Positions 48,521 to 57,937 of a DNA stretch of 64,000 nucleotides are shown here, piece by piece; positions within the stretch are counted from its first letter, which is position 1, and each line of letters begins with the position of its first letter. Both the position numbers and the translations under genes were made by a program. The DNA is from a bacterium SCSIO 12696 (GTDB taxonomy: Bacteria; Pseudomonadota; Gammaproteobacteria; Pseudomonadales; Porticoccaceae), in assembly GCA_024397955.1 (NCBI GenBank), contig CP073744.1, positions 868,001 through 932,000 on the forward strand, in the 5' to 3' direction. The notes under the pieces were generated by a model. It saw only the letters and a list, made by a program, of their open reading frames with translations, searched no databases and was not told the origin of the DNA.

Positions 48521-48543
48521 GTTTTAAGGCAAACAATCAGCTC

Positions 48544-49002
48544 TCAGTTATTTTTTTGGTTACGTTGGTGAATAGTATCGAACTTAAAACGAGCGGCCCA
48601 TATACCCAAAACTATACCTAAGAGATAAGGCAAACCAAAGCTGAAAACACTGAGCATTACCAACCATCCGAAGATCATAATTGGCACTTCGATAGCTGAA
48701 AAAGCGCTACCGAAAATTGAAATAAAGGTTAAAACCAAGCTCGCCGATAGTACCGTCAACCCAACAACACTCAAGCCAAAGCCAACACCTCTTCTTTCAA
48801 GCTTGTCGACTTTAGCCAAGTTTTCAAAATCGAACTTCTTTATCAAATAACGGGCCCAGGCAAACGCGACCAATGACGACGGCACACCAATCGTCAAAGC
48901 CAAGGACATTGCATTGATAATCAGCCCAGCTCCGAACGAAACTAACAGACCACCCAAACCAAAAACCATAGCGACGGTATTTTCAAGGCCTAATTTTTTC
49001 AT
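48544..49002 (-). CDS. Multi-pass membrane protein, unknown
   Basis: A 152-residue protein with four hydrophobic segments, at about 12-32, 34-47, 75-97 and 104-135, and short charged loops (KKFDFENLAKVDKLERR). No family is recognised. It is the leftmost gene of the AT-richer minus-strand group and has no attC-like site next to it, so membership in the cassette array is not supported. Confidence 0.6.
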   Translation of the reverse strand: MKKLGLENTVAMVFGLGGLLVSFGAGLIINAMSLALTIGVPSSLVAFAWARYLIKKFDFENLAKVDKLERRGVGFGLSVVGLTVLSASLVLTFISIFGSAFSAIEVPIMIFGWLVMLSVFSFGLPYLLGIVLGIWAARFKFDTIHQRNQKNN

Positions 49003-49056
49003 AGCACCGAAATCAGCCGAGCAATAAAAGCAACATTCGCTATCATCCGGTCAGCC

Positions 49057-49848
49057 TCAGACATTGATAAAGCCTTCAAGGTAATGAACGGCCTTACCTG
49101 AAATAAACACTCTATCTCCTGCCAAACGACACAACAGAACACCACCGCGTTTTGATGCTTGATAGGCAAGAAGCTGCTTTTTAGCCAATCGCTCAGACCA
49201 ATACGGTGTAAGCCCGGTATGGATTGACCCTGTCACTGGATCTTCATCACCACCGTTCGCGGGCCAGAAATATCTTGAGACGAAGTCGTATTCCTTTCCC
49301 GGAGCCGTCACGACCACATCGTATGGCGCAAGTTTTTTAAGATATTCCTTATTTTGGACGACGCTCAAAACATCGTGTTCATTCTCATAGACTGCGAAGT
49401 ACGCTTGATTATTGAACAGTACTTTTGAAGGTTCAATCGACAGCCCCTGTAACAGCTCCTCTGGAAAACAATCTGGAATATGTGGCTTTCTACACGGGAA
49501 ATCCATCTGAATATAGCCATCATCGGTTTTCGTGATGACCATTCGCCCGACGGCTTCAGCTGAAAACACTAACTCAGACACTTCCGAGTTGTCGTTAAAA
49601 ATAACGGAAGCCGACGCCAGTGTTGCATGGCCGCAAAACGCAATCTCAGTGATTGGAGAAAACCAGCGTATTGCATAGGTCTCATCACTAGACCTAACCA
49701 AATAAGCTGTCTCGGATAGGTTATTTTCTGTAGCAATGGACTGCATTAATTCATCTGACAACCATTCTTCAGTGATTACGACAGCCGCCGAATTACCTTT
49801 GAATCTTTCTTCGGTAAAGGCATCAACAATATTTACTCTTAATTTCAC
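49057..49848 (-). CDS. PhzF-family isomerase-like protein
   Basis: A 263-residue protein with a GTG start. It has the PhzF fold markers: N-terminal VDAFTEERFKGNSAAV, the catalytic glutamate in NNLSETAYLV, ISEIAFCGHATLA-type block (TEIAFCGHATLASA) and DPVTGSIHTGL. Family members isomerise or epimerise hydrophobic metabolites; the substrate is unknown. It lies 15 bases upstream of a GFA-like gene's stop, suggesting co-transcription. Confidence 0.82.
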   Translation of the reverse strand: MKLRVNIVDAFTEERFKGNSAAVVITEEWLSDELMQSIATENNLSETAYLVRSSDETYAIRWFSPITEIAFCGHATLASASVIFNDNSEVSELVFSAEAVGRMVITKTDDGYIQMDFPCRKPHIPDCFPEELLQGLSIEPSKVLFNNQAYFAVYENEHDVLSVVQNKEYLKKLAPYDVVVTAPGKEYDFVSRYFWPANGGDEDPVTGSIHTGLTPYWSERLAKKQLLAYQASKRGGVLLCRLAGDRVFISGKAVHYLEGFINV

Positions 49849-49863
49849 CGTCTTACTCAGCTT

Positions 49864-50265
49864 TTAAATTACCGTTGACCAAACCGTAGGCCAACGCTCA
49901 GACTTATCCTCAGGAGAAAGCTTTTTAGGGCTAACACCAATAGATGGCTTTAGTGAAAAACCCCTTTCAAACAACGCTTTTGACACAGCTCCTCTTGTTT
50001 CTCCATCTTTTGAATGTGTCACAGCGATCACTTGCTTACAGTGGCTGCACTGCCAGAAGGTAGCCTGCTGAGAACCTTGCTTAAGTTGATTCAATTGATT
50101 TTTAGGCGAAAAGGAAATAGTGCCGTTTACATCTGACAAATAGGCAAGCCCATGGGCCACACAAAAGTCGCAGTCGCACTCTCGCGCTTGATTTTCTTCA
50201 ATGGGAAGAGGAAATGATGCTAAAACCTTCACTTTCCCGCATTTGCACTCAGATGAATATTCCAT
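49864..50265 (-). CDS. GFA/aldehyde-activating-like zinc protein
   Basis: A 133-residue protein with the cysteine pattern of the GFA family: CKCGKVKV near the N-terminus, CDCDFCVAHG at about 28-37 and CSHCKQV at about 72-78. These cysteines should bind zinc. Glutathione-dependent aldehyde handling is the family name, but most members have no proven reaction. It precedes the PhzF-like gene. Confidence 0.72.
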   Translation of the reverse strand: MEYSSECKCGKVKVLASFPLPIEENQARECDCDFCVAHGLAYLSDVNGTISFSPKNQLNQLKQGSQQATFWQCSHCKQVIAVTHSKDGETRGAVSKALFERGFSLKPSIGVSPKKLSPEDKSERWPTVWSTVI

Positions 50266-50383
50266 TTAATTTTCTATTTTTATCGCTTAAATATGGCATT
50301 TATTTTTGGAGCACGTTGAGCAATACAAAATTCATTTCAGCCATGAGAGTCGACCGGCATACACCTGTTATGATTTGAGTTAT

Positions 50384-50746
50384 TTAAGTACACACAACTT
50401 CATCTTTGTCTTGCAGCTTCGGGGGCGTACCCTCTGTGCCTTCATCTATCAGGTATCGAGTTACAAAACAGCCTTTATGATAACTTTTATGATCACGCCA
50501 AGTACCCATCAGAAAACAAGCCATTACTTGATTTCGCTCATTTTTGTACCAAAATAGTAATCTATTCGCATCATAGGAATTATCTGAATTAGCAATCAAA
50601 GATAAATGCTTCATTTTTTCAGCATTATCTGGATAAATCTGAAACCAGACTCCAGGAAAATCACTTTGCCCGCAGTCGAATTGACTATCTTCAATCGAAG
50701 TGCAAGCAGATAGTACTGATAATGAGCCTAAGATAACTTTATTCAT
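50384..50746 (-). CDS. Small lipoprotein, unknown
   Basis: A 120-residue protein from ATG 50746. The signal peptide MNKVILGSLSVLSACTS carries the lipobox LSAC. The mature part has four further cysteines and aromatic residues (GVWFQIYPDNAEK, RLLFWYKNERNQVMAC). No domain is recognised. It lies at the left edge of the probable cassette array. Confidence 0.6.
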   Translation of the reverse strand: MNKVILGSLSVLSACTSIEDSQFDCGQSDFPGVWFQIYPDNAEKMKHLSLIANSDNSYDANRLLFWYKNERNQVMACFLMGTWRDHKSYHKGCFVTRYLIDEGTEGTPPKLQDKDEVVCT

Positions 50747-50765
50747 AAAGAGCAATGGAATTTTG

Positions 50766-50818
50766 TGCAGCACCTAAAGAACGAATTGAACCTTGCTACC
50801 ATGTCAGGTGCTACTTTT
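50766..50818. repeat. Inverted repeat with TGCAGCACCT, possible degenerate recombination site
   Basis: GCAGCACCT (50767-50775) pairs with AGGTGCTAC-type sequence near 50806-50814. TGCAGCACCT and a later CTACTT recur at 51366 in the next intergenic gap, which suggests a shared mobile or recombination-site origin. Confidence 0.4.
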
Positions 50819-51311
50819 CCTGCAGCCACTCTTGAAATTCCGCCACAGTAGCTGGGGTGAATTCCAGTATCGCCTCAGCTAATTCTGCGTTACCAAAATG
50901 CACCGCTGTCACTGCAGCCAGAACGGAAACCATTTTTTCATCCGGTGATTTTATTTCACTAGCAAGCTTAGCCATTGTTTGAATAGCACTAGTATAAGCA
51001 AACTCTAAGCATGGCCCAATTTTTGGTCCACAACCTTTTAACCGAGCTATTTCAATACATACCGGCAGCAAAAAATAGTTGTAATCAACTATTTCTGGTG
51101 CCTTTTCAATTAAAGAAACAATCACTGGAACAGCCGCATACGATGCAGAATAGACGTTTCCCTGATGGCACAAACTACTCCACAGTGTATAGAAGGGCTC
51201 TTCTCCATAGCTTTCACATGACGGGTAGACCTCTAGCTCTTTCAGTAACTGAGGAATGTCAGATGCCTGCCCATAAGCATGCTCCAGTTCATCCCATTCA
51301 ATTGACTCCAT
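50811..51311 (-). CDS. HEAT-like helical protein, unknown
   Basis: A 166-residue cytoplasmic protein starting at ATG 51311. It is almost all helical, with the segment FYTLWSSLCHQGNVYSASYA followed by VPVIVSLIEKAPE. The pattern looks like a HEAT-repeat protein of the sort also found as immunity or accessory proteins, but no function can be assigned. A longer frame to 51401 reads through the intergenic repeat and is not supported. Confidence 0.6.
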   Translation of the reverse strand: MESIEWDELEHAYGQASDIPQLLKELEVYPSCESYGEEPFYTLWSSLCHQGNVYSASYAAVPVIVSLIEKAPEIVDYNYFLLPVCIEIARLKGCGPKIGPCLEFAYTSAIQTMAKLASEIKSPDEKMVSVLAAVTAVHFGNAELAEAILEFTPATVAEFQEWLQEK

Positions 51312-51359
51312 TTTTGATCTCTTTTTCCACTTAGCACCATGCACAATGACCGAGGAGGC

Positions 51360-51410
51360 AATACTTGCAGCACCTGAGCGATGAAACTTTATTGCCTGCA
51401 CCTACTTATG
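51360..51410. repeat. Second TGCAGCACCT repeat
   Basis: It contains TGCAGCACCT at 51366-51375 and a GGCAATA/TATTGCC pair around it, ending CTACTT. It resembles the site at 50766 and occupies the gap between the HEAT-like and zinc-ribbon genes. Confidence 0.4.
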
Positions 51411-51435
51411 TGGCTCTACACAACACGCAACTACA

Positions 51436-51714
51436 CTAGAACCACACCCTTTTCATACTCGCAAGAAATTTTCTTGTAATGGGAAATCCGGATGCAGAGC
51501 CTATTACTGAGTCAATACCACAGTACGGGCACAATGCAGTATGGCCATATTCTTCTTCGCCAATAGCATCTCTGTGAACATCACACCATTTATCAATTTT
51601 CTTAGGAGAAAACCTTTCAAGACAATAAAAGCAGCCACATAAATCAGACTTCAATATTTCTGCTCGGTGATTTGCTGATTTTGAATGCGCCCCTTTCGCA
51701 TTATCATTCTCCAT
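51436..51714 (-). CDS. Small zinc-ribbon protein
   Basis: A 92-residue cytoplasmic protein with two cysteine pairs: CGCFYC at about 27-32 and CPYCGIDSVIG at about 62-72, with HTALCPYCG as the core. This matches a small conserved family usually called a cytoplasmic protein; its function is not known. It starts 30 bases from an attC-like site, as expected for a cassette gene. Confidence 0.68.
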   Translation of the reverse strand: MENDNAKGAHSKSANHRAEILKSDLCGCFYCLERFSPKKIDKWCDVHRDAIGEEEYGHTALCPYCGIDSVIGSASGFPITRKFLASMKRVWF

Positions 51715-51743
51715 CAACGACCTACCTTTAACTCTTTAGAATC

Positions 51744-51820
51744 ACATAACGCCTTGCCCAAAAGCACAGCGACAACCAAGTTCAACACGGCTTTGTCACC
51801 TTTTGGAGCAAATTGTAAGC
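51744..51820 (-). repeat. attC-like site
   Basis: On the plus strand the site starts ACATAAC and ends TTGTAAG. The inner arms CCTTGCCCAAAAG and CTTTTGGAGCAAA pair, and so do ACAGCGACAA and TTGTC sequences nearer the centre. The 77-bp length and imperfect pairing fit an integron attC, with a degenerate outer end. Confidence 0.6.
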
Positions 51821-51829
51821 ATACTGAGG

Positions 51830-52213
51830 CTACCCACTAACATCCAGATCGAAATATCTCCACTGCATAAGGCCATGACCAAAATCATTTTCCTCCTTTA
51901 GCTCTCTAAGAGTTACATCATCACCAAACTTGGGAGAACCTAGCTTTTTATAATATTGCTTTGTAATTAATATTTCCTCAGTTTTACCTAAACGGTCCCC
52001 ACAAAATACAAAATCCTGGCTTGGCAGCATAGTTCCCTTGAACAAAAATATAAATTCATCATCCGCGGTTTCCTTAGGCTCAGAAACAACCTGACCTATA
52101 ATTTCACACTGCGAGACAATTCCAGCAGATATAGAGCAAGAAAATGTCGAAACAATTAAAGTCCATATATGCTTAAACTTGATATTTTTCGCTCCTTGAG
52201 CAATAAACTGCAT
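51830..52213 (-). CDS. Exported protein, unknown
   Basis: A 127-residue protein. A hydrophobic segment at about 16-30 (IWTLIVSTFSCSISAGIV) is probably a signal peptide preceded by a long N-region, so the real start could be a little downstream. The mature part has two cysteines and is otherwise unremarkable. GGCGG precedes the ATG. No family is recognised. Confidence 0.55.
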   Translation of the reverse strand: MQFIAQGAKNIKFKHIWTLIVSTFSCSISAGIVSQCEIIGQVVSEPKETADDEFIFLFKGTMLPSQDFVFCGDRLGKTEEILITKQYYKKLGSPKFGDDVTLRELKEENDFGHGLMQWRYFDLDVSG

Positions 52214-52239
52214 TCCGCCGCCTAAAATTTTTAACAGTT

Positions 52240-52644
52240 TTATATCGCATATTGACTCATATGCCCCATGATATTTTTAGGGATGCTGGGCCAACTATAA
52301 CCACCATTTTCATCCCATGACTTAGAGCCTGACATAAGCCCCATTTTTAGTAGTTCTTCTTGTAGTTGATCATGCGGGTAGATATACCATTGCCCACTTT
52401 GGCTAAAAGCCACATAAATTTCTTTGCCGTTGTATTTTTTATCGAGGGTTAAACGCCCCTTTAATTGGACTTTTATGAAAGTTCTGCCATCAATGTGGCA
52501 AGCGATAAAATCAGCACCCTGCCAGTCATCGTTGAGCCACATGCAGTTAAACCCATAATCAGATAGTTCCGCCGCGACCTTTTGAAAGTTGAAATTTTCT
52601 TTTTGTCTGGAGTTTAAATTTCCATACTCAATGCGATTAAACAT
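52240..52644 (-). CDS. Possible PD-(D/E)XK-fold protein
   Basis: A 134-residue cytoplasmic protein with an AGGA ribosome-binding site. The stretch DDWQGADFIACHIDGRTFIKVQLKGR has the Asp...(Q/E)-x-K spacing of the PD-(D/E)XK nuclease fold, with Gln in the usual Glu position. It could be a small endonuclease or an inactive relative. It starts 14 bases from an attC-like site. Confidence 0.58.
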   Translation of the reverse strand: MFNRIEYGNLNSRQKENFNFQKVAAELSDYGFNCMWLNDDWQGADFIACHIDGRTFIKVQLKGRLTLDKKYNGKEIYVAFSQSGQWYIYPHDQLQEELLKMGLMSGSKSWDENGGYSWPSIPKNIMGHMSQYAI

Positions 52645-52657
52645 GATTTTCCTGTAT

Positions 52658-52739
52658 TGTTAACGACTCAATAATCGGCAACTAAAATAGAGCGAAGCGG
52701 ATTTTTGGCTGTCCAGCGCCTTTAGGCGCGCAGTTAATT
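52658..52739 (-). repeat. attC-like site
   Basis: Plus-strand ends are TGTTAAC and GTTAATT; CGGCAACTAAAAT and ATTTTTGGCTGTC pair imperfectly inside. The match to the attC core motifs is weaker than for the neighbouring sites, but position (just before the 52644 start) fits. Confidence 0.5.
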
Positions 52740-52753
52740 GACTTGCTAGCACT

Positions 52754-53239
52754 TTAGTTTACGGCCTCTTGCTCTAGAAAGATGGGCAAACTGGAAAATC
52801 TTGAATTTAAAACTTCGGTTTGACCCAGAAAATAGAGCTGGAATGCTTCTTCCACCCATTCCGGCTGCTCTAGAACATAGGCAGTAACCCATTGAACTTC
52901 TTTTTCCTTTCCGAAGCCAAACATAGTTTTTATTTTCTTTGGCTGAACGATACCCACAAGATATGCGAACTCTTCCGAGCTTCCTACTACAGAAACCCAG
53001 AGATCAATTTTTGTTTCTGAATTTTTAACTGAAATAGTTGGCTCGCTACCACCTTTGTTATTTCCGACCTGCTCTTTCCAAGGAAAGGCCCTAAATTCCT
53101 TCTTAAAAATTTCAAATGTAGCACTTCCCTTCAGGTCATATTGGTCAAACCTATAGCCCGCCTGCTGAATATCATACGTGAATGAATCTGCCATAGCCGG
53201 CCCTGAAAAGAAAACAATAATGGTTAGTAGTACTTTCAT
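52754..53239 (-). CDS. Exported protein, unknown
   Basis: A 161-residue protein from ATG 53239, with signal peptide MKVLLTIIVFFSGPAMADSF. The mature part is rich in aromatic residues (YDIQQAGYRFDQYDLKGSAT) and has no cysteines. A longer frame to 53287 only reads through the attC-like site. No domain is recognised. Confidence 0.6.
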   Translation of the reverse strand: MKVLLTIIVFFSGPAMADSFTYDIQQAGYRFDQYDLKGSATFEIFKKEFRAFPWKEQVGNNKGGSEPTISVKNSETKIDLWVSVVGSSEEFAYLVGIVQPKKIKTMFGFGKEKEVQWVTAYVLEQPEWVEEAFQLYFLGQTEVLNSRFSSLPIFLEQEAVN

Positions 53240-53245
53240 ATTAAG

Positions 53246-53310
53246 TGCTAACGTCGAAACAGCGGAGAGACACACGTAGTGTGGCAATCCGCCACCTTGC
53301 CTGGTTATGG
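53246..53310 (-). repeat. attC-like site
   Basis: Plus-strand ends TGCTAAC and GTTATGG flank AGCGGAGAGACACAC and GTGTGGCAATCCGC arms. The 65-bp length and central ACGT fit an attC. The next gene starts 7 bases outside it. Confidence 0.65.
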
Positions 53311-53311
53311 C

Positions 53312-53653
53312 TTAGTACTGAAACCACTCTATCTTATCCACCTCAAAGGTAACCATGTTGACATACATCGCCCCCTCACCATCATTAATAACATGATTAG
53401 AATTTCTTGGTTTCGGAGCCAAAAACATCCAACAACCTTCCTTATTTTTGAAAAGTTTACCTTGCTCACGCAATAATTTTGATAACTCATAAGTCACACT
53501 CTTATCGGACAGATGCTCAATAGCTTTTTCAATATTTTGTAAAACAAAATTTTTACTTTTATCGGGAATTTGGCAATACTCAGGCTCCCTCACCCATGCG
53601 CACCCCGCCAAAATAACCAAGATAATAATTCCTGAAAATTTATACATAGTCAT
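53312..53653 (-). CDS. Small lipoprotein, unknown
   Basis: A protein of 113 residues from ATG 53653 (or 111 from 53647), with signal peptide FSGIIILVILAGCAW and lipobox LAGC. The mature part includes LSDKSVTYELSKLLREQG and a tryptophan-rich end. Extension upstream to 53707 reads only attC sequence. No family is recognised. Confidence 0.6.
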   Translation of the reverse strand: MTMYKFSGIIILVILAGCAWVREPEYCQIPDKSKNFVLQNIEKAIEHLSDKSVTYELSKLLREQGKLFKNKEGCWMFLAPKPRNSNHVINDGEGAMYVNMVTFEVDKIEWFQY

Positions 53654-53728
53654 AACGCCTTTGGCACAGGCGGCTACGCAGTAGCCGTCCAGCTCGCTTG
53701 CGGGCAACTGTGTCCAAACTTGTTAAAA
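53650..53728 (-). repeat. attC-like site
   Basis: Plus-strand ends TCATAAC and GTTAAAA; arms GCCTTTGGCACAG and CTGTGTCCAAACTT pair well, and GGCTAC/GTAGCC forms an inner stem. The stop codon of the following gene lies in the outer end, typical of a cassette. Confidence 0.72.
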
Positions 53729-54391
53729 ATTTTTACCCCGTAGCTTACTGAGCGGGATGCCTTTTTTATAGATAACTTCATAAACTTTGATTATGTTGCG
53801 TTTTTCACAGCCTGAAAAGCAGTTTTCGTTTAAGTCTATTTCTTTAGCTTGATACTCAAGAACACCAAGAGAGGCAAGGTATTCAAGCTCATCTGCCCCT
53901 TGGTCACTGCCTTGATAGCGGACGATTGGCTCTTTAAGGGGGACTAGGAAGCTATCTTGGTTTTTTTGGTCGTGTATAGATAAAACTCTAAGTACTTGCG
54001 GAATGGTGTCGACAACTTGATACCCTTCAGACGTTTTAGTTAGGCGGGCCACTCCTCGATATATTGAAAATTTAGGCCAAACAGAAACCATTGCTATGGA
54101 TGGTGAAACGGGCATACCGTCCCAGCTGGACCCGCAATCATAGGAGGCTATGACGCGATTTAGCTTACGTAGTTTTTCTCCTTCACCTGTCAGGTATTCA
54201 TCAACCCTAAATGTTACAACTTCGCTCCCACATGAATGATCTAAGAGACCTTCCTCAGCTTTAGCTTCTTTAGGTTTTTGAGCTGTAATCGTAACCTCTT
54301 CGACTTCTCCCATCATAAGATCAAGACGAAAATCATCTGCTTCTGAATAAGTAGAAAATAACAGAATTAGTACTAGCGGCACAAATTTCAT
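53723..54391 (-). CDS. Exported protein, unknown
   Basis: A 222-residue protein from ATG 54391 with signal peptide MKFVPLVLILLFSTYSEADD. The mature part is acidic at first (LMGEVEEVTITAQKPKE), then holds a domain with DYLTGEGEKLRKLNRVIASY and a pair of late cysteines (ENCFSGCEKRN). The EEVTITAQKP segment resembles a plug-type or secreted-domain start, but no function is assigned. Confidence 0.6.
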   Translation of the reverse strand: MKFVPLVLILLFSTYSEADDFRLDLMMGEVEEVTITAQKPKEAKAEEGLLDHSCGSEVVTFRVDEYLTGEGEKLRKLNRVIASYDCGSSWDGMPVSPSIAMVSVWPKFSIYRGVARLTKTSEGYQVVDTIPQVLRVLSIHDQKNQDSFLVPLKEPIVRYQGSDQGADELEYLASLGVLEYQAKEIDLNENCFSGCEKRNIIKVYEVIYKKGIPLSKLRGKNF

Positions 54392-54396
54392 AAGAT

Positions 54397-54489
54397 TTTT
54401 AACGTTCCAGTAAGGGGCAGACAAACCAACTGTTTGGATGTCCCGTGAAACCCCGCAGGAGCGGAGTGAACTTGACCGGCTTGTTCGGC
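54397..54489 (-). repeat. attC-like site
   Basis: Plus-strand ends TTTTAAC and GTTCGGC, 93 bp. GGGG and CCCC blocks and a CCGCAGGAGCGG palindrome are inside. The core motifs are less good than in the sites to the right, but the flanking genes fit tightly. Confidence 0.52.
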
Positions 54490-54493
54490 ATTA

Positions 54494-54841
54494 TTAGGAG
54501 CAAATTACCAGAACTCCTAGGTATTCTTTATGGCCTTTGGGTACGCCATAAAAATTAGGATGGACTATAAGATCAGGGGCTTGCTTAGCCCTTTGCTTTT
54601 CAGTGTTTTCTTTTTCAATTTTTACCTGAGCTTCGTATAGCTGCTTTGAAAAAATTAAACCGTCAAATTCATATGGAACCTCTTTTTCCAGTTCTGAGAC
54701 TCTCTCCGAAAGTCTTGGAGCAATACTAAATAGGGTAAATGCCTCAATCACCTGACAGTTCTCAGGAAGTACTTTGAACACCTCCGCACTTAAAACGAAA
54801 GACGACCAAGATATAAGTGCAATAGCTTGTAGCAACTTCAT
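54494..54841 (-). CDS. Exported protein, unknown
   Basis: A 115-residue protein with signal peptide MKLLQAIALISWSSFVLSAE. The mature part has FEGLIF-like (YEFDGLIFSKQLYEAQVKIE) helical segments and PNFYGVPKGHKEYLGVLVIC at the end. No family is recognised. It begins 6 bases from an attC-like site and ends 5 bases from another. Confidence 0.6.
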   Translation of the reverse strand: MKLLQAIALISWSSFVLSAEVFKVLPENCQVIEAFTLFSIAPRLSERVSELEKEVPYEFDGLIFSKQLYEAQVKIEKENTEKQRAKQAPDLIVHPNFYGVPKGHKEYLGVLVICS

Positions 54842-54846
54842 ATTAT

Positions 54847-54906
54847 GCCTAACGCCGCAAACATGTGCGACGCGGAGCGGCGCCCATGTGCTTTGGCTGG
54901 TTATGA
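54847..54906 (-). repeat. attC site
   Basis: A classical 60-bp form: plus-strand GCCTAAC at 54847-54853 matches RYYYAAC exactly, and GTTATGA closes it. CCGCAAACATGTGCG pairs with CGCCCATGTGCTTTGGC with the extra unpaired base expected of attC. The minus-strand gene to its right ends inside it. Confidence 0.8.
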
Positions 54907-55211
54907 GTATTTATGAACTTACCGCCCAGCATAAAAGCAATACATACATATGCCAATGACATTAGCCAAAAGAAAGCCTGCTTTAAGAAAAAACCCAAAC
55001 CTATTCTTTTGTGATTGAACCATTGGACATAGCACAAAGGAAGAAAAGAGAAGGGAATGGCAAGTGCCGAAACCACTAAACAAATAGCTTGCCAACTATA
55101 AATACTTACTGAATCCAACGTTCTTAATGACAAAAAACAAGTAAACATTAACAAACATGAGATTAACAATGTTACGACAAAATAACCTTTATTTCGTTGA
55201 ATGAAATCCAT
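54849..55211 (-). CDS. Small membrane protein, unknown
   Basis: A 120-residue protein with three hydrophobic segments, at about 11-30, 38-62 and 73-96. The last 15 residues are coded by the attC site itself, and the stop lies in its outer end. No domain is recognised. Confidence 0.6.
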   Translation of the reverse strand: MDFIQRNKGYFVVTLLISCLLMFTCFLSLRTLDSVSIYSWQAICLVVSALAIPFSFLPLCYVQWFNHKRIGLGFFLKQAFFWLMSLAYVCIAFMLGGKFINTHNQPKHMGAAPRRTCLRR

Positions 55212-55220
55212 TCTTACTAC

Positions 55221-55292
55221 TCATAACGCCGCGCTCTGCGGCGAATTTGGAGCGTAGCAGAAAATTTGTCCGACAGCAGTGTCTTGTTAGGT
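55221..55292 (-). repeat. attC site
   Basis: Plus-strand ends TCATAAC and GTTAGGT (the latter an exact GTTRRRY) enclose CTGCGGCGAATTT and AAATTTGTCCGACAG arms that pair with bulges. The stop of the nuclease gene (TAA) is within the outer end and the next gene starts 10 bases away. Confidence 0.8.
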
Positions 55293-56051
55293 TTCTTCAA
55301 ATATATTTCTACCAAAAATACCATGAAACTGCTCCTCGACCCTTTGTAACATTTCGCAAAATTCGTCCAGCAAACCTCTGTATGTATTGGATTCAAATGA
55401 GAATTCACTTCCCATTGTTTCTACAAACTTAGCCTTGTAATCTTCGATACATACCGGACCATCAACGGCATATTGTGGAGCAATTCGCCCCATATCCATT
55501 AGCCACATTAGCATCCCAAAAGCGGCATAACGATTCTGCAACTCGTAGAAATACTCAAGTTGATCATGTGTGAGTTTTTCCAAGTGTCGACTGCGCCTGC
55601 TGTTTATAGGTTCGACGTACTGATTTACGCAGTCAGCTGCCTCTGCAACTGTGGGGCAGAAATGCTTTTGCCACCAAGAATTGAAGTAACGTTGTTGCAA
55701 CTCTAAATAAGTTAAGCCTGTAATATTTGTATTTTGCGTATATCGCACAGCGCCTTCCTGAAGGCCCTTTTTCGAAACAATGAAACCTATATTTGCCCCA
55801 GCTTCTTGCATGACGGTTGTGAATGAGTGAACGACTGTTTGCGGTATTGAGTTAGACCAGTTTTTGCACTCCACCAGATATTGAATTTGATCGACACTGT
55901 GCTCGTCGATTGCAAAGACATCAACTTCAACCGTACCCCTCGGAGTTTGTAGAATCTTTTCTGTCTCTGCTAATAACCCGATATCACTAAATAGTCTACA
56001 AACTCCATTCTGTAGGTCTTTCCAATTCTGAGGCAAGGGATCGTCGATCAT
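55287..56051 (-). CDS. Mrr-like PD-(D/E)XK restriction endonuclease domain protein
   Basis: A 254-residue cytoplasmic protein. The N-terminal 130 residues form a PD-(D/E)XK domain: GTVEVDVFAIDEH followed by YLVECKNWSNSIPQ gives the Asp...Glu-x-Lys active site, and SFTTVMQEAGANIGFIVSKKG is the Mrr-type strand-helix block. The C-terminal half is helical and of unknown role. It is the first cassette on the right of the array, and a DNA-defence or mobile-element role is plausible but unproven. Confidence 0.72.
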   Translation of the reverse strand: MIDDPLPQNWKDLQNGVCRLFSDIGLLAETEKILQTPRGTVEVDVFAIDEHSVDQIQYLVECKNWSNSIPQTVVHSFTTVMQEAGANIGFIVSKKGLQEGAVRYTQNTNITGLTYLELQQRYFNSWWQKHFCPTVAEAADCVNQYVEPINSRRSRHLEKLTHDQLEYFYELQNRYAAFGMLMWLMDMGRIAPQYAVDGPVCIEDYKAKFVETMGSEFSFESNTYRGLLDEFCEMLQRVEEQFHGIFGRNIFEET

Positions 56052-56434
56052 CTTTAAAACCTAACAGCTCGTTTAACGGGCCTTCGGCCCGATAACAATT
56101 ATTATCGGGATTCCCAGTTAATATACTATCGGGCAGCCCACCAAAACCTCAACAATTTGATTTAAAAGAAAAACCCTCATATCAAATATGTTTGATTCTG
56201 TTATCGAGCCTCAATTTACCCTACCGGTGACTTAAAATTAAAGGCAGAAGTACACCTGCTTAACACCTCTCCTGTTACACGTTATTTGCCACATAACCTT
56301 TTCAAACCACCATATCAACCAAGCATCTCGCCATATTGCTTCTTTTAAGCATCAATATGCCTATTTCGCCAATTCATTGTGCTACCCCTGGCCACTAGAA
56401 TAAAAGTTAACGCAGCATATAGCCGGGATACACC
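56052..56434. other. Intergenic region with an attC right half and palindromes
   Basis: Next to the nuclease start, minus-strand CCCGTTAAACGAGCTGTTAGGT (22 bases at 56059-56080, here named by its end GTTAGGT) agrees with the typical right half of an attC. The other half is not clear: a GGGCC/GGCCC hairpin and a CCCGATAA/TTATCGGG pair lie beside it, ending near GTTAATA (56117-56123). From 56124 to 56434 I see only AT-rich DNA and the promoter region of the aminotransferase gene; no integrase or attI is evident. Confidence 0.5.
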
Positions 56435-57937
56435 ATGACCATGATTCAGCCAATCTCTGCGACTGACCGCCTCGCCCCATTACGTCGTTTCGCCGGGCAG
56501 CCAATGACCACAGGGTTAGGTGACCCACTGATTAACCAGTTTGCCAGTAGTGATTCCTGCTTACTCCGCGCCATTGATCATGCGGTGGACTACGCCAATC
56601 ATATGGCTTCGCGGTACCCATCGCTTATGGATTTGGACGAGCAACAGCAGATTGAACAAATCCAGCAAGGTTTTTTGAATTTCTACCAAAGTGACGCAGT
56701 AACCCCTTACGTTGCAGCCGGAGCTGCTGGCCCCTGGATTATCACCTTGAAAGGTGCGGTTTTATACGACACTGGTGGCTACGGCATGCTGGGGTTGGGC
56801 CACGCTCCTGAGACCATTTTACAGGCCATAAACGCGCCTCATGTAATGGCCAATATCATGACTCCCAACCTCAGCCAGATGGCACTGATAGACGCACTTC
56901 GCCAGGAAGTGGGCCATAACCGCGAGCAGGGCTGCCCCTACCACAGTTTTCTGTGCATGAATTCAGGCAGTGAATCGGTTTCGGTAGCAGCACGGATTTC
57001 CGATGTGAACGCCAAGCAAATGACCGACAAGGGCGCCAGACACGCAGGCAAGCCCATTATGCGGGTTGCCTTGAAGGGCGCCTTCCATGGGCGAACAGAT
57101 CGCCCGGCGCAGTATTCCGATTCCAGTATGGCAACCTACAAGAAATATCTGGCCAGCTTCCAAGGTGAACCACGTTTGATTACGGTAGAAGCCAACAACT
57201 GCGAGCAGTTGAAAGTGGTTTTTGAAGCGGCAAATGCAGAAAACTGGTTTATCGAATCCATGTTTTTTGAGCCGGTGATGGGAGAAGGTAACCCAGGCCT
57301 GGCTATTACACCGGCGTTTTACGCACTGGCGCGCCAGCTGACCGAAGAACACGGGGCTCTGTTATTAGCGGATTCCATTCAGGCCGGGCTACGCACCACC
57401 GGCAATTTGTCTATTACCGACTACCCCGGTTTTGAAAAGCTGCCGGCACCGGATATGGAAACCTACTCCAAAGCCCTTAATGGCGGCCAATACCCGTTGT
57501 CGGTTTTGGCCCTGTCCAGCAAGGCACACAAGCTGTATCAAAAGGGTTTGTATGGAAATACCATGACCACCAACCCCCGGGCCATGGATGTGGCTGTGGC
57601 AGTGCTGGACGCCATCACCCCGAACCTGCGTAAAAACATTGTGGCAACTGGCAATGCACTGGTGGAAAAATTTTCAGCCCTTATGAACGAGCTGGGCGGG
57701 GCTATTACCAAGGTACAGGGCACTGGCCTGCTGGTGAGCATTGAGCTCAGTGAGAGCTACAAGTGTTTTGGCGCCAACAGCATCGAGAACTACCTGCGTA
57801 CCCAGGGTATTAATGTGATTCACGGCGGCACTAACTCCCTGCGATTTACTCCCTGGTTTAACATCAGCGACAACGAAATCGACTTACTGGTCAATGCCAC
57901 CAAGGACGCTCTGTTAAACGGCCCCAGAAAAACTTAA
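56435..57937 (+). CDS. Class III PLP aminotransferase (possible lysine 6-aminotransferase)
   Basis: A 500-residue fold-type I aminotransferase. The PLP lysine is Lys346 in YSKALNGGQYPLSV, ALLLADSIQAGL carries the PLP-nitrogen aspartate, and GAFHGRTDRPAQYS and NSGSESV are present. It is longer than acetylornithine transaminases and resembles lysine-epsilon or similar diamine transaminases; the substrate is uncertain. It is monocistronic or coupled to rsmE 43 bases downstream. Confidence 0.78.
   Translation: MTMIQPISATDRLAPLRRFAGQPMTTGLGDPLINQFASSDSCLLRAIDHAVDYANHMASRYPSLMDLDEQQQIEQIQQGFLNFYQSDAVTPYVAAGAAGPWIITLKGAVLYDTGGYGMLGLGHAPETILQAINAPHVMANIMTPNLSQMALIDALRQEVGHNREQGCPYHSFLCMNSGSESVSVAARISDVNAKQMTDKGARHAGKPIMRVALKGAFHGRTDRPAQYSDSSMATYKKYLASFQGEPRLITVEANNCEQLKVVFEAANAENWFIESMFFEPVMGEGNPGLAITPAFYALARQLTEEHGALLLADSIQAGLRTTGNLSITDYPGFEKLPAPDMETYSKALNGGQYPLSVLALSSKAHKLYQKGLYGNTMTTNPRAMDVAVAVLDAITPNLRKNIVATGNALVEKFSALMNELGGAITKVQGTGLLVSIELSESYKCFGANSIENYLRTQGINVIHGGTNSLRFTPWFNISDNEIDLLVNATKDALLNGPRKT

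What the first reader, a model, noticed from the sequence alone, without database searches (positions are those of the whole stretch)
50384..56123. Integron cassette array without an integrase (CALIN)
Between about 51.7 and 56.1 kb, short minus-strand genes alternate with 60-93 bp imperfect palindromes whose ends approach RYYYAAC and GTTRRRY. Genes start within tens of bases of one site and end in the next, and stop codons fall inside the sites, as in integron cassettes. All face the same way. No tyrosine recombinase or attI is present in the window. The genes look more AT-rich than their neighbours.
Basis: partly seen in the sequence, partly recalled or inferred. Interest (0 to 1): 0.75.

Follow-up and report, generated by a model that had tools for sequence, protein, structure and literature searches.

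The report
Integrase-less cassette array with orphan attI
A block of about eleven small genes sits in a genuine integron docking site that has lost its own integrase gene, and related bacteria have swapped cassettes at such abandoned docking sites, so one integrase elsewhere in the genome may serve several platforms.

Summary
The array is real. A covariance model built from 29 attC sites of the genome's distant integron finds five sites in the 64 kb window, all in the block; two weaker ones appear without filters. Each cassette start matches its own end: the true order is the best of 5040 permutations.

Window 56060-56215 is an attI: 85% identical to the sequence beside an intact intI in a same-genus genome, and the first cassette begins at its crossover. 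So this is an integron platform without intI, not a bare attC cluster.

Such attI-headed arrays are dispersed: 78 hits in 26 of 112 family genomes; 8 of 78 lie beside near full-length intI, 54 of 78 precede attC sites. At six orthologous platforms without intact intI, similarity between species stops within 14 bp of the crossover in 29 of 30 pairs; one pair differs by exactly one 385-bp cassette. An integrase acting in trans is the best explanation, though only 3 of those 10 genomes hold one over the cut-off today. For this array itself trans supply is inferred, not shown.

The parts
56060..56215 (-). attI (type A) at the head of the array; crossover at 56065 (G) | 56064 (TT); cassettes run to lower coordinates
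   Evidence: 85% identity over 150 bp to the stretch beside intact intI in G002; R2 hit 91.8 bits (the window was one of 17 training copies); the first cassette's two ends match 9 of 9 at this junction
56077..56091 (-). hairpin inside attI, six base pairs
   Evidence: compensatory changes in 4 of 6 pairs over 17 copies and 6 of 6 over 87 model matches (that alignment was fitted to the structure)
55287..56051 (-). cassette gene 1, Mrr-type restriction endonuclease-like protein, 254 aa
   Evidence: Pfam PF04471 Mrr_cat 42 bits, cut-off 21
55219..55294 (-). attC 1
   Evidence: R1 48.8 bits, E 7.2e-11
54849..55211 (-). cassette gene 2, 120 aa, no family
   Evidence: ORF; no Pfam match
54845..54908 (-). 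attC 2; 90% identical over 62 bp to a site of the home array
   Evidence: R1 40.9 bits; blastn to L007 10957-11018
54494..54841 (-). cassette gene 3, 115 aa, no family
54395..54491 (-). attC 3
   Evidence: R1 24.8 bits
53723..54391 (-). cassette gene 4, 222 aa from its ATG, no family
   Evidence: ORF taken from a later ATG
53648..53730 (-). attC 4
   Evidence: R1 43.9 bits; bottom strand folds with z -3.55
53312..53653 (-). cassette gene 5, 113 aa from its ATG, no family
   Evidence: ORF taken from a later ATG
53244..53312 (-). attC 5, weak for the model
   Evidence: R1 filters off 11.3 bits, E 0.31; both boxes match their cassettes 8 of 9
52754..53239 (-). cassette gene 6, 161 aa from its ATG, no family
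   Evidence: ORF taken from a later ATG
52656..52753 (-). attC 6
   Evidence: R1 33.3 bits
52240..52644 (-). cassette gene 7, 134 aa, no family
52215..52240 (-). truncated attC 7 (an R''-like box and a GGCGGCG end left)
   Evidence: read from the sequence; box matches cassette 7 start 7 of 9 with the 9-mer set by hand; no model hit
51830..52213 (-). cassette gene 8, 127 aa, no family
51742..51823 (-). attC 8, decayed
   Evidence: R1 filters off 14.4 bits, E 0.042
51436..51714 (-). cassette gene 9, 92 aa, no family
51340..51410 (-). probable degenerate attC 9
   Evidence: read from the sequence only; no model hit
50811..51311 (-). probable cassette gene 10, 166 aa
   Evidence: ORF taken from a later ATG; only a Pfam match below its cut-off
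50384..50743 (-). probable cassette gene 11, 119 aa; R''-like box at 50365-50378
   Evidence: no Pfam match; array end read by eye

Best explanation
The block is a sedentary integron platform that has lost its integrase gene but kept its attI. Cassettes were inserted one after another at the G|TT crossover of attI (56065/56064), each new one next to attI, and read away from it. Shown: attI homology, attC sites, self-consistent cassettes, no intI in the window. Inferred: after the local intI was lost, cassettes at such orphan attI sites are supplied and removed by an integrase encoded elsewhere in the genome, as precise cassette turnover at orthologous orphan attI loci in related species indicates. 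In this genome the only integron integrase over the cut-off (61 kb) is of another type with another attI, so this array may now be poorly served; its far attC sites are decaying.
For: attC: model from 29 sites outside the window, five hits in the window and all in the block, seven with E < 1 without filters. Cassettes: true order best of 5040 permutations. attI: 85% identity to the stretch between intI and the array in G002; 7 further R2 hits that were not used to build R2 lie 140-159 bp from near full-length intI, divergently. In 78 attI loci 130 of 132 attC hits are downstream on the same strand, 2 upstream on the same strand (an attI copy inside an array), 0 on the other strand. Trans supply: in six orthologous locus groups without intact intI, 29 of 30 pairs lose similarity within 14 bp of the crossover (27 within 7), and similarity of 100 bp or more resumes further down in 22 of 30. 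G071 and G120 differ by exactly one 385-bp cassette at the crossover.
Against: Turnover is not shown at the window itself: in G002 the interval between the same two neighbours holds two other genes and no attC. G000's integrase is 49% identical to the one whose attI this resembles. Of the 10 genomes in the six locus groups only G016, G045 and G051 have an integrase over the cut-off today, and in only 2 of 30 pairs do both genomes; the clean G071/G120 pair has none in either (assemblies 86% and 78% complete), so an integrase must have been lost later or be missing from assemblies. In 8 of 30 pairs (those of L206 with the five others of its group, and of L208 with the three others of its group) no downstream similarity of 100 bp is seen within the 5 kb fetched. 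24 of 78 attI-like loci show no attC in the stretch fetched, some of them at contig ends. Only one of seven attC sites folds clearly better than shuffles. 18 of the 48 flank-similar pairs were not examined.
Confidence: 0.7

Rival explanations
1. A plain decayed integron: intI was lost, the array has been frozen since, and attI is only a leftover with no further use.
For: Type-A intI is absent from G000; the lowest attC scores lie among the sites far from attI; 16 of 78 attI loci keep only parts of intI; 15 of the 26 genomes with type-A attI have no integrase over the cut-off; [quoted passage not shown]
Against: At related orphan attI sites cassettes differ between species that share the absence of a local intI.
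Confidence: 0.23
2. Cassettes were inserted into an ordinary genomic site (attG) by the integrase acting off target.
For: Known route (recalled; mentioned in the passages); arrays at 1151 and 2783 kb of this genome have no recognised attI.
Against: The junction is an attI homologous to intI-adjacent sites, with 150 bp of leader.
Confidence: 0.04
3. The array was cut off the 61-kb integron by a chromosomal rearrangement.
For: Two attC sites are 82% and 90% identical to home-array sites.
Against: The window's attI is not that of the 61-kb integron (R2 gives no hit in L006/L007); that integron is at the same place as in G002; apart from attC-derived ends no cassette gene of the block matches the stretches compared.
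Confidence: 0.02
4. A fixed operon with chance palindromes.
For: One direction, tight spacing.
Against: Model hits with E down to 7e-11, permutation test, absent from the same interval in G002.
Confidence: 0.01

Closest known systems
CALIN (cluster of attC sites lacking an integron integrase)
   Same: Two or more attC sites, no neighbouring intI, cassettes all one way
   Different: It has an attI at its head; IntegronFinder 2.0 does not detect attI outside class 1 (PMC9024848, passages)
Sedentary chromosomal integron with inactivated intI, e.g. Xanthomonas ilvD locus (PMC12444791, passages)
   Same: Platform kept, integrase lost
   Different: Here several attI platforms lie in one chromosome, and orthologous platforms without intI show precise cassette differences between species
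attG insertions of cassettes (the paper I recalled for it is not held; attG is mentioned in the passages)
   Same: Cassettes at dispersed chromosomal sites, integrase in trans
   Different: The receiving site is a true attI with leader, not an unrelated genomic site
Delta-attI-type cassettes of mobile integrons (PMC12901181, passages)
   Same: attI sequence found away from intI; a 47-bp attI copy lies inside an array in G110
   Different: The window's attI is at the array head with about 150 bp of leader

Membership tests
[quoted passage not shown]
   five hits with E <= 4e-4 in 64 kb
CALIN | no integron integrase nearby | tested here: met
   TIGR02249 over its cut-off only at C1:61139-62077 in this genome; none of its 5 matches lies in the window
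Integron cassette | R' at cassette start complements R'' at its end | tested here: met
   33 of 35 variable positions over 7 cassettes, 1 of 5040 permutations
Integron cassette | attC bottom strand folds as a stable single-strand hairpin | tested here: inconclusive
   1 of 7 sites clearly better than shuffles
Complete integron | intI next to attI | tested here: not met
attI site | lies beside intI in relatives | tested here: met
   G002 and 7 further hits at 140-159 bp from near full-length intI
attI site | cassettes enter at its G|TT | tested here: met
   at the window: first cassette's ends match 9 of 9 at this point; in related loci 29 of 30 ortholog pairs diverge within 14 bp, one clean 385-bp cassette difference
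attI site | recombines with attC under IntI | not testable with these tools
   needs an assay
attG insertion | receiving site is not an attI or attC site | tested here: not met

The most novel reading that the evidence does not exclude
A distributed integron: in this bacterial family one integrase serves several chromosomal attI platforms, which are inherited as stable loci after losing their own intI. Two attI types coexist; at the same home locus one sister species carries integrase B and the other integrase A, each keeping orphan attI copies of the other type. attI contains a conserved hairpin next to the crossover.
Probability: 0.5. Interest if true: 0.85.

Novelty: new variant of a known kind. 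Interest (0 to 1): 0.7.

Why it matters
The origin of CALINs is open, with three proposed routes (off-target insertion, loss of intI, rearrangement; PMC8618304, passages). An attI model helps to tell them apart, because IntegronFinder reports no attI outside class 1 (PMC9024848, passages). Orthologous platforms without intI whose cassettes still differ at the exact crossover suggest that losing intI need not end a platform's life, and give natural experiments for trans activity of integrases and for attI specificity.

Tried and rejected
Motif-only scans for RYYYAAC/GTTRRRY pairs were swamped by chance hits. Rfam at gathering threshold found nothing in the window. A clean empty site for the window block was sought in the two same-genus genomes held: G002 has other genes in the interval and its flank similarity ends at 56331, G001 has the aminotransferase in another context, so no junction can be read. 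One genome-contig scan with the aminotransferase kept the best 80 of 571 relatives, with 57-62% identity in the best segment, and no nearer named genome. Scan of 55900-56460: no sigma-70-like match (shuffles 1.7), so no cassette promoter is claimed; one terminator-like match at 56259-56244 (shuffles 0.3), not followed. PADLOC on ten cassette proteins: one weak match, for protein 1. Nearest-neighbour test of attI cores (three short copies of 78 left out): same genome in 30 of 67 testable copies, shuffled mean 17.2, 1 of 2000 shuffles as high; as there is also clear orthology in genus g4, both vertical inheritance and copying within lineages seem to occur. How an attI platform first comes to a new place was not solved.
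Full report
OBSERVATION. The minus strand from 56.06 to about 50.38 kb holds some eleven short genes with imperfect palindromes between them. To avoid circular reasoning I took attC sites from elsewhere. The window lies at C1:868001-932000 of a one-contig 2.93 Mb genome, G000, whose only integron integrase over the curated cut-off is at C1:61139-62077 (402 bits). It heads an array from which I picked 29 sites by eye and script; the model later found at least one more there (C1:73575-73662). Model R1 from the 29 finds five sites in the window, all in the block and on the minus strand; two more with E < 1 appear with filters off. Cassettes are consistent within themselves: true order best of 5040 permutations; the home array gives 117 of 140 against at most 82 in 20000 shuffles. 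The block is poor in G+C. Of ten cassette proteins scanned against Pfam one has a family above its cut-off, Mrr_cat; the eleventh has none.

blastn of the block against other stretches showed the 160 bp at its head once more, at the head of another array at 1931 kb of the same genome (84%). In the family search the best match outside this genome is in same-genus G002, at C12:84526-84675, next to intact intI at C12:83479-84426 (85%). So the head is an attI. The 1931-kb copy still carries about 72 bp of the 5' end of intI; the window copy has none.

FAMILY-WIDE. Model R2, built from 17 copies, found 78 hits in 26 of 112 genomes, up to 8 in one genome. Four of the genomes with hits, G000, G001, G038 and G042, are single contigs with 3, 4, 4 and 1 hits, so multiplicity is not only an assembly effect. 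I fetched all 78 and searched them with R1 and R2. Near full-length intI lies 140-159 bp away, divergently, in 8 of 78 (7 of these not in the R2 training set); partial intI in 16; none detected in 54. At least one attC follows in 54 of 78; of 132 attC hits 130 are downstream on the same strand and none is on the other strand (two pairs of loci overlap, L172/L216 and L183/L228, so a few hits count twice). Of the 26 genomes, 11 have an integrase over the cut-off: G000, G002 and 9 of the 24.

TURNOVER WITHOUT A LOCAL INTEGRASE. Flank proteins group attI loci of different species into orthologous platforms (one search lists 48 flank-similar pairs; I examined the 30 pairs within six groups, 10 genomes in all). 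In none of the six groups is an intact intI found; group beta keeps 5' remnants. In group alpha all six pairs match without a break from about -1540 to the crossover; in the others the flank is homologous up to attI with indels in some pairs, so I infer that the absence of intI is shared by descent, most firmly for alpha. In 29 of 30 pairs nucleotide similarity stops within 14 bp of the crossover, in 27 within 7; the thirtieth pair (G116, G038) shares its first cassette. Further down, similarity of 100 bp or more resumes in 22 of 30 pairs; I did not annotate whether this is chromosome or later cassettes. Between G071 and G120 the difference is one complete cassette of 385 bp with its own attC, exactly at G|TT. 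Near-identical downstream ORFs (98-99%) lie at platform beta in G016 and at platform gamma in G071. In G020 a protein of about 83 aa like that of the beta flank (80-86%) lies in the locus that has near full-length intI, so beta is probably an integron that lost intI in place. Against this reading: of the 10 genomes only G016, G045 and G051 hold an integrase over the cut-off today, and both genomes do in only 2 of 30 pairs; some assemblies are incomplete.

TWO TYPES. The 61-kb integron of G000 and the C12 integron of G002 lie at the same place (the three longest shared flank ORFs are 94.7-96.1% identical), but their integrases are 49% identical and R2 does not match the G000 site. The G000 attI, type B, is itself dispersed: matches in 20 of 112 genomes, in many of them only to its last 36 bp, with further copies in G000 at 1534, 2145 and 652 kb and in G002 at C14 and C53 (the G002 copies were not fetched). 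The 1534-kb copy lies at the head of the two-site array at 1533 kb. So each sister species keeps attI copies of the other's type away from its integrase.

MECHANISM. Most likely: an ancestral integron copy with attI-A came to stand between the cmoB-like gene and the aminotransferase gene (the names cmoA, cmoB, rsmE and purL are my recognition from the sequences and were not tested; the aminotransferase is Pfam PF00202), was filled by successive insertion at attI, lost intI, and stayed open to an integrase in trans while one that accepts attI-A was present. How platforms reach new places is unknown: between the non-home type-A loci of G000, G001 and G002 one search lists no shared flank ORF (at least 90 aa and 50% identity) in the stretches fetched.

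NOVELTY. Papers were seen only as passages (PMC12444791, PMC9024848, PMC12901181, PMC8618304) or search listings. Among the papers listed by these six searches of the open-licence library I saw no report of several orphan attI platforms in one chromosome; subscription papers are not covered, and the phrase search was swamped by unrelated words. The attG work is known to me by recall and through the passages only (its paper is not held).

Noticed in passing
window 56077-56091; alignments A3, A4: attI contains a six-pair hairpin just upstream of the crossover with strong covariation: 68 cells changed on both sides against 11.9 in shuffles, 96.4% paired. The 87-match alignment was fitted to the structure and holds a few weak or reverse-strand matches.
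   Followed up: partly
G000 C1:61 kb (L248, L007) and G002 C12:84 kb (L237, L137): Same chromosomal place, different integrase and attI type: an integrase swap between sister species.
   Followed up: partly
G000 C1:1534233-1534372 with attC at 1533290-1533943 (L108): A two-site array headed by a type-B attI copy; its attC sites score highest of the dispersed ones (75.8 and 70.5 bits), so perhaps recent.
   Followed up: partly
L172 5677-5723 (G110): A 47-bp attI copy stands inside a cassette array, like the Delta-attI cassettes of mobile integrons.
   Followed up: partly
G000 C1:1151-1154, 2783 and 680 kb (L107, L110, L111): Further attC clusters in the same genome, and a single weak site at 680 kb (25.2 bits), with no type-A attI and no type-B match.
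   Followed up: partly
window 48521-50359: PhzF-like gene, a GFA-like gene (below the Pfam cut-off) and a small protein without family, also low in G+C (43.3%) and in the array's direction, but no attC with E < 1; perhaps an older insertion beside the array.
   Followed up: no
L103 7850-9253 (G002): The same cmoB-aminotransferase interval in G002 holds two other genes (208 aa, and 196 aa that looks NUDIX-like by eye): a variable spot.
   Followed up: partly
G001, one-contig genome: Four type-A attI copies and ten attC hits although no integron-integrase match reaches E 1e-30.
   Followed up: partly
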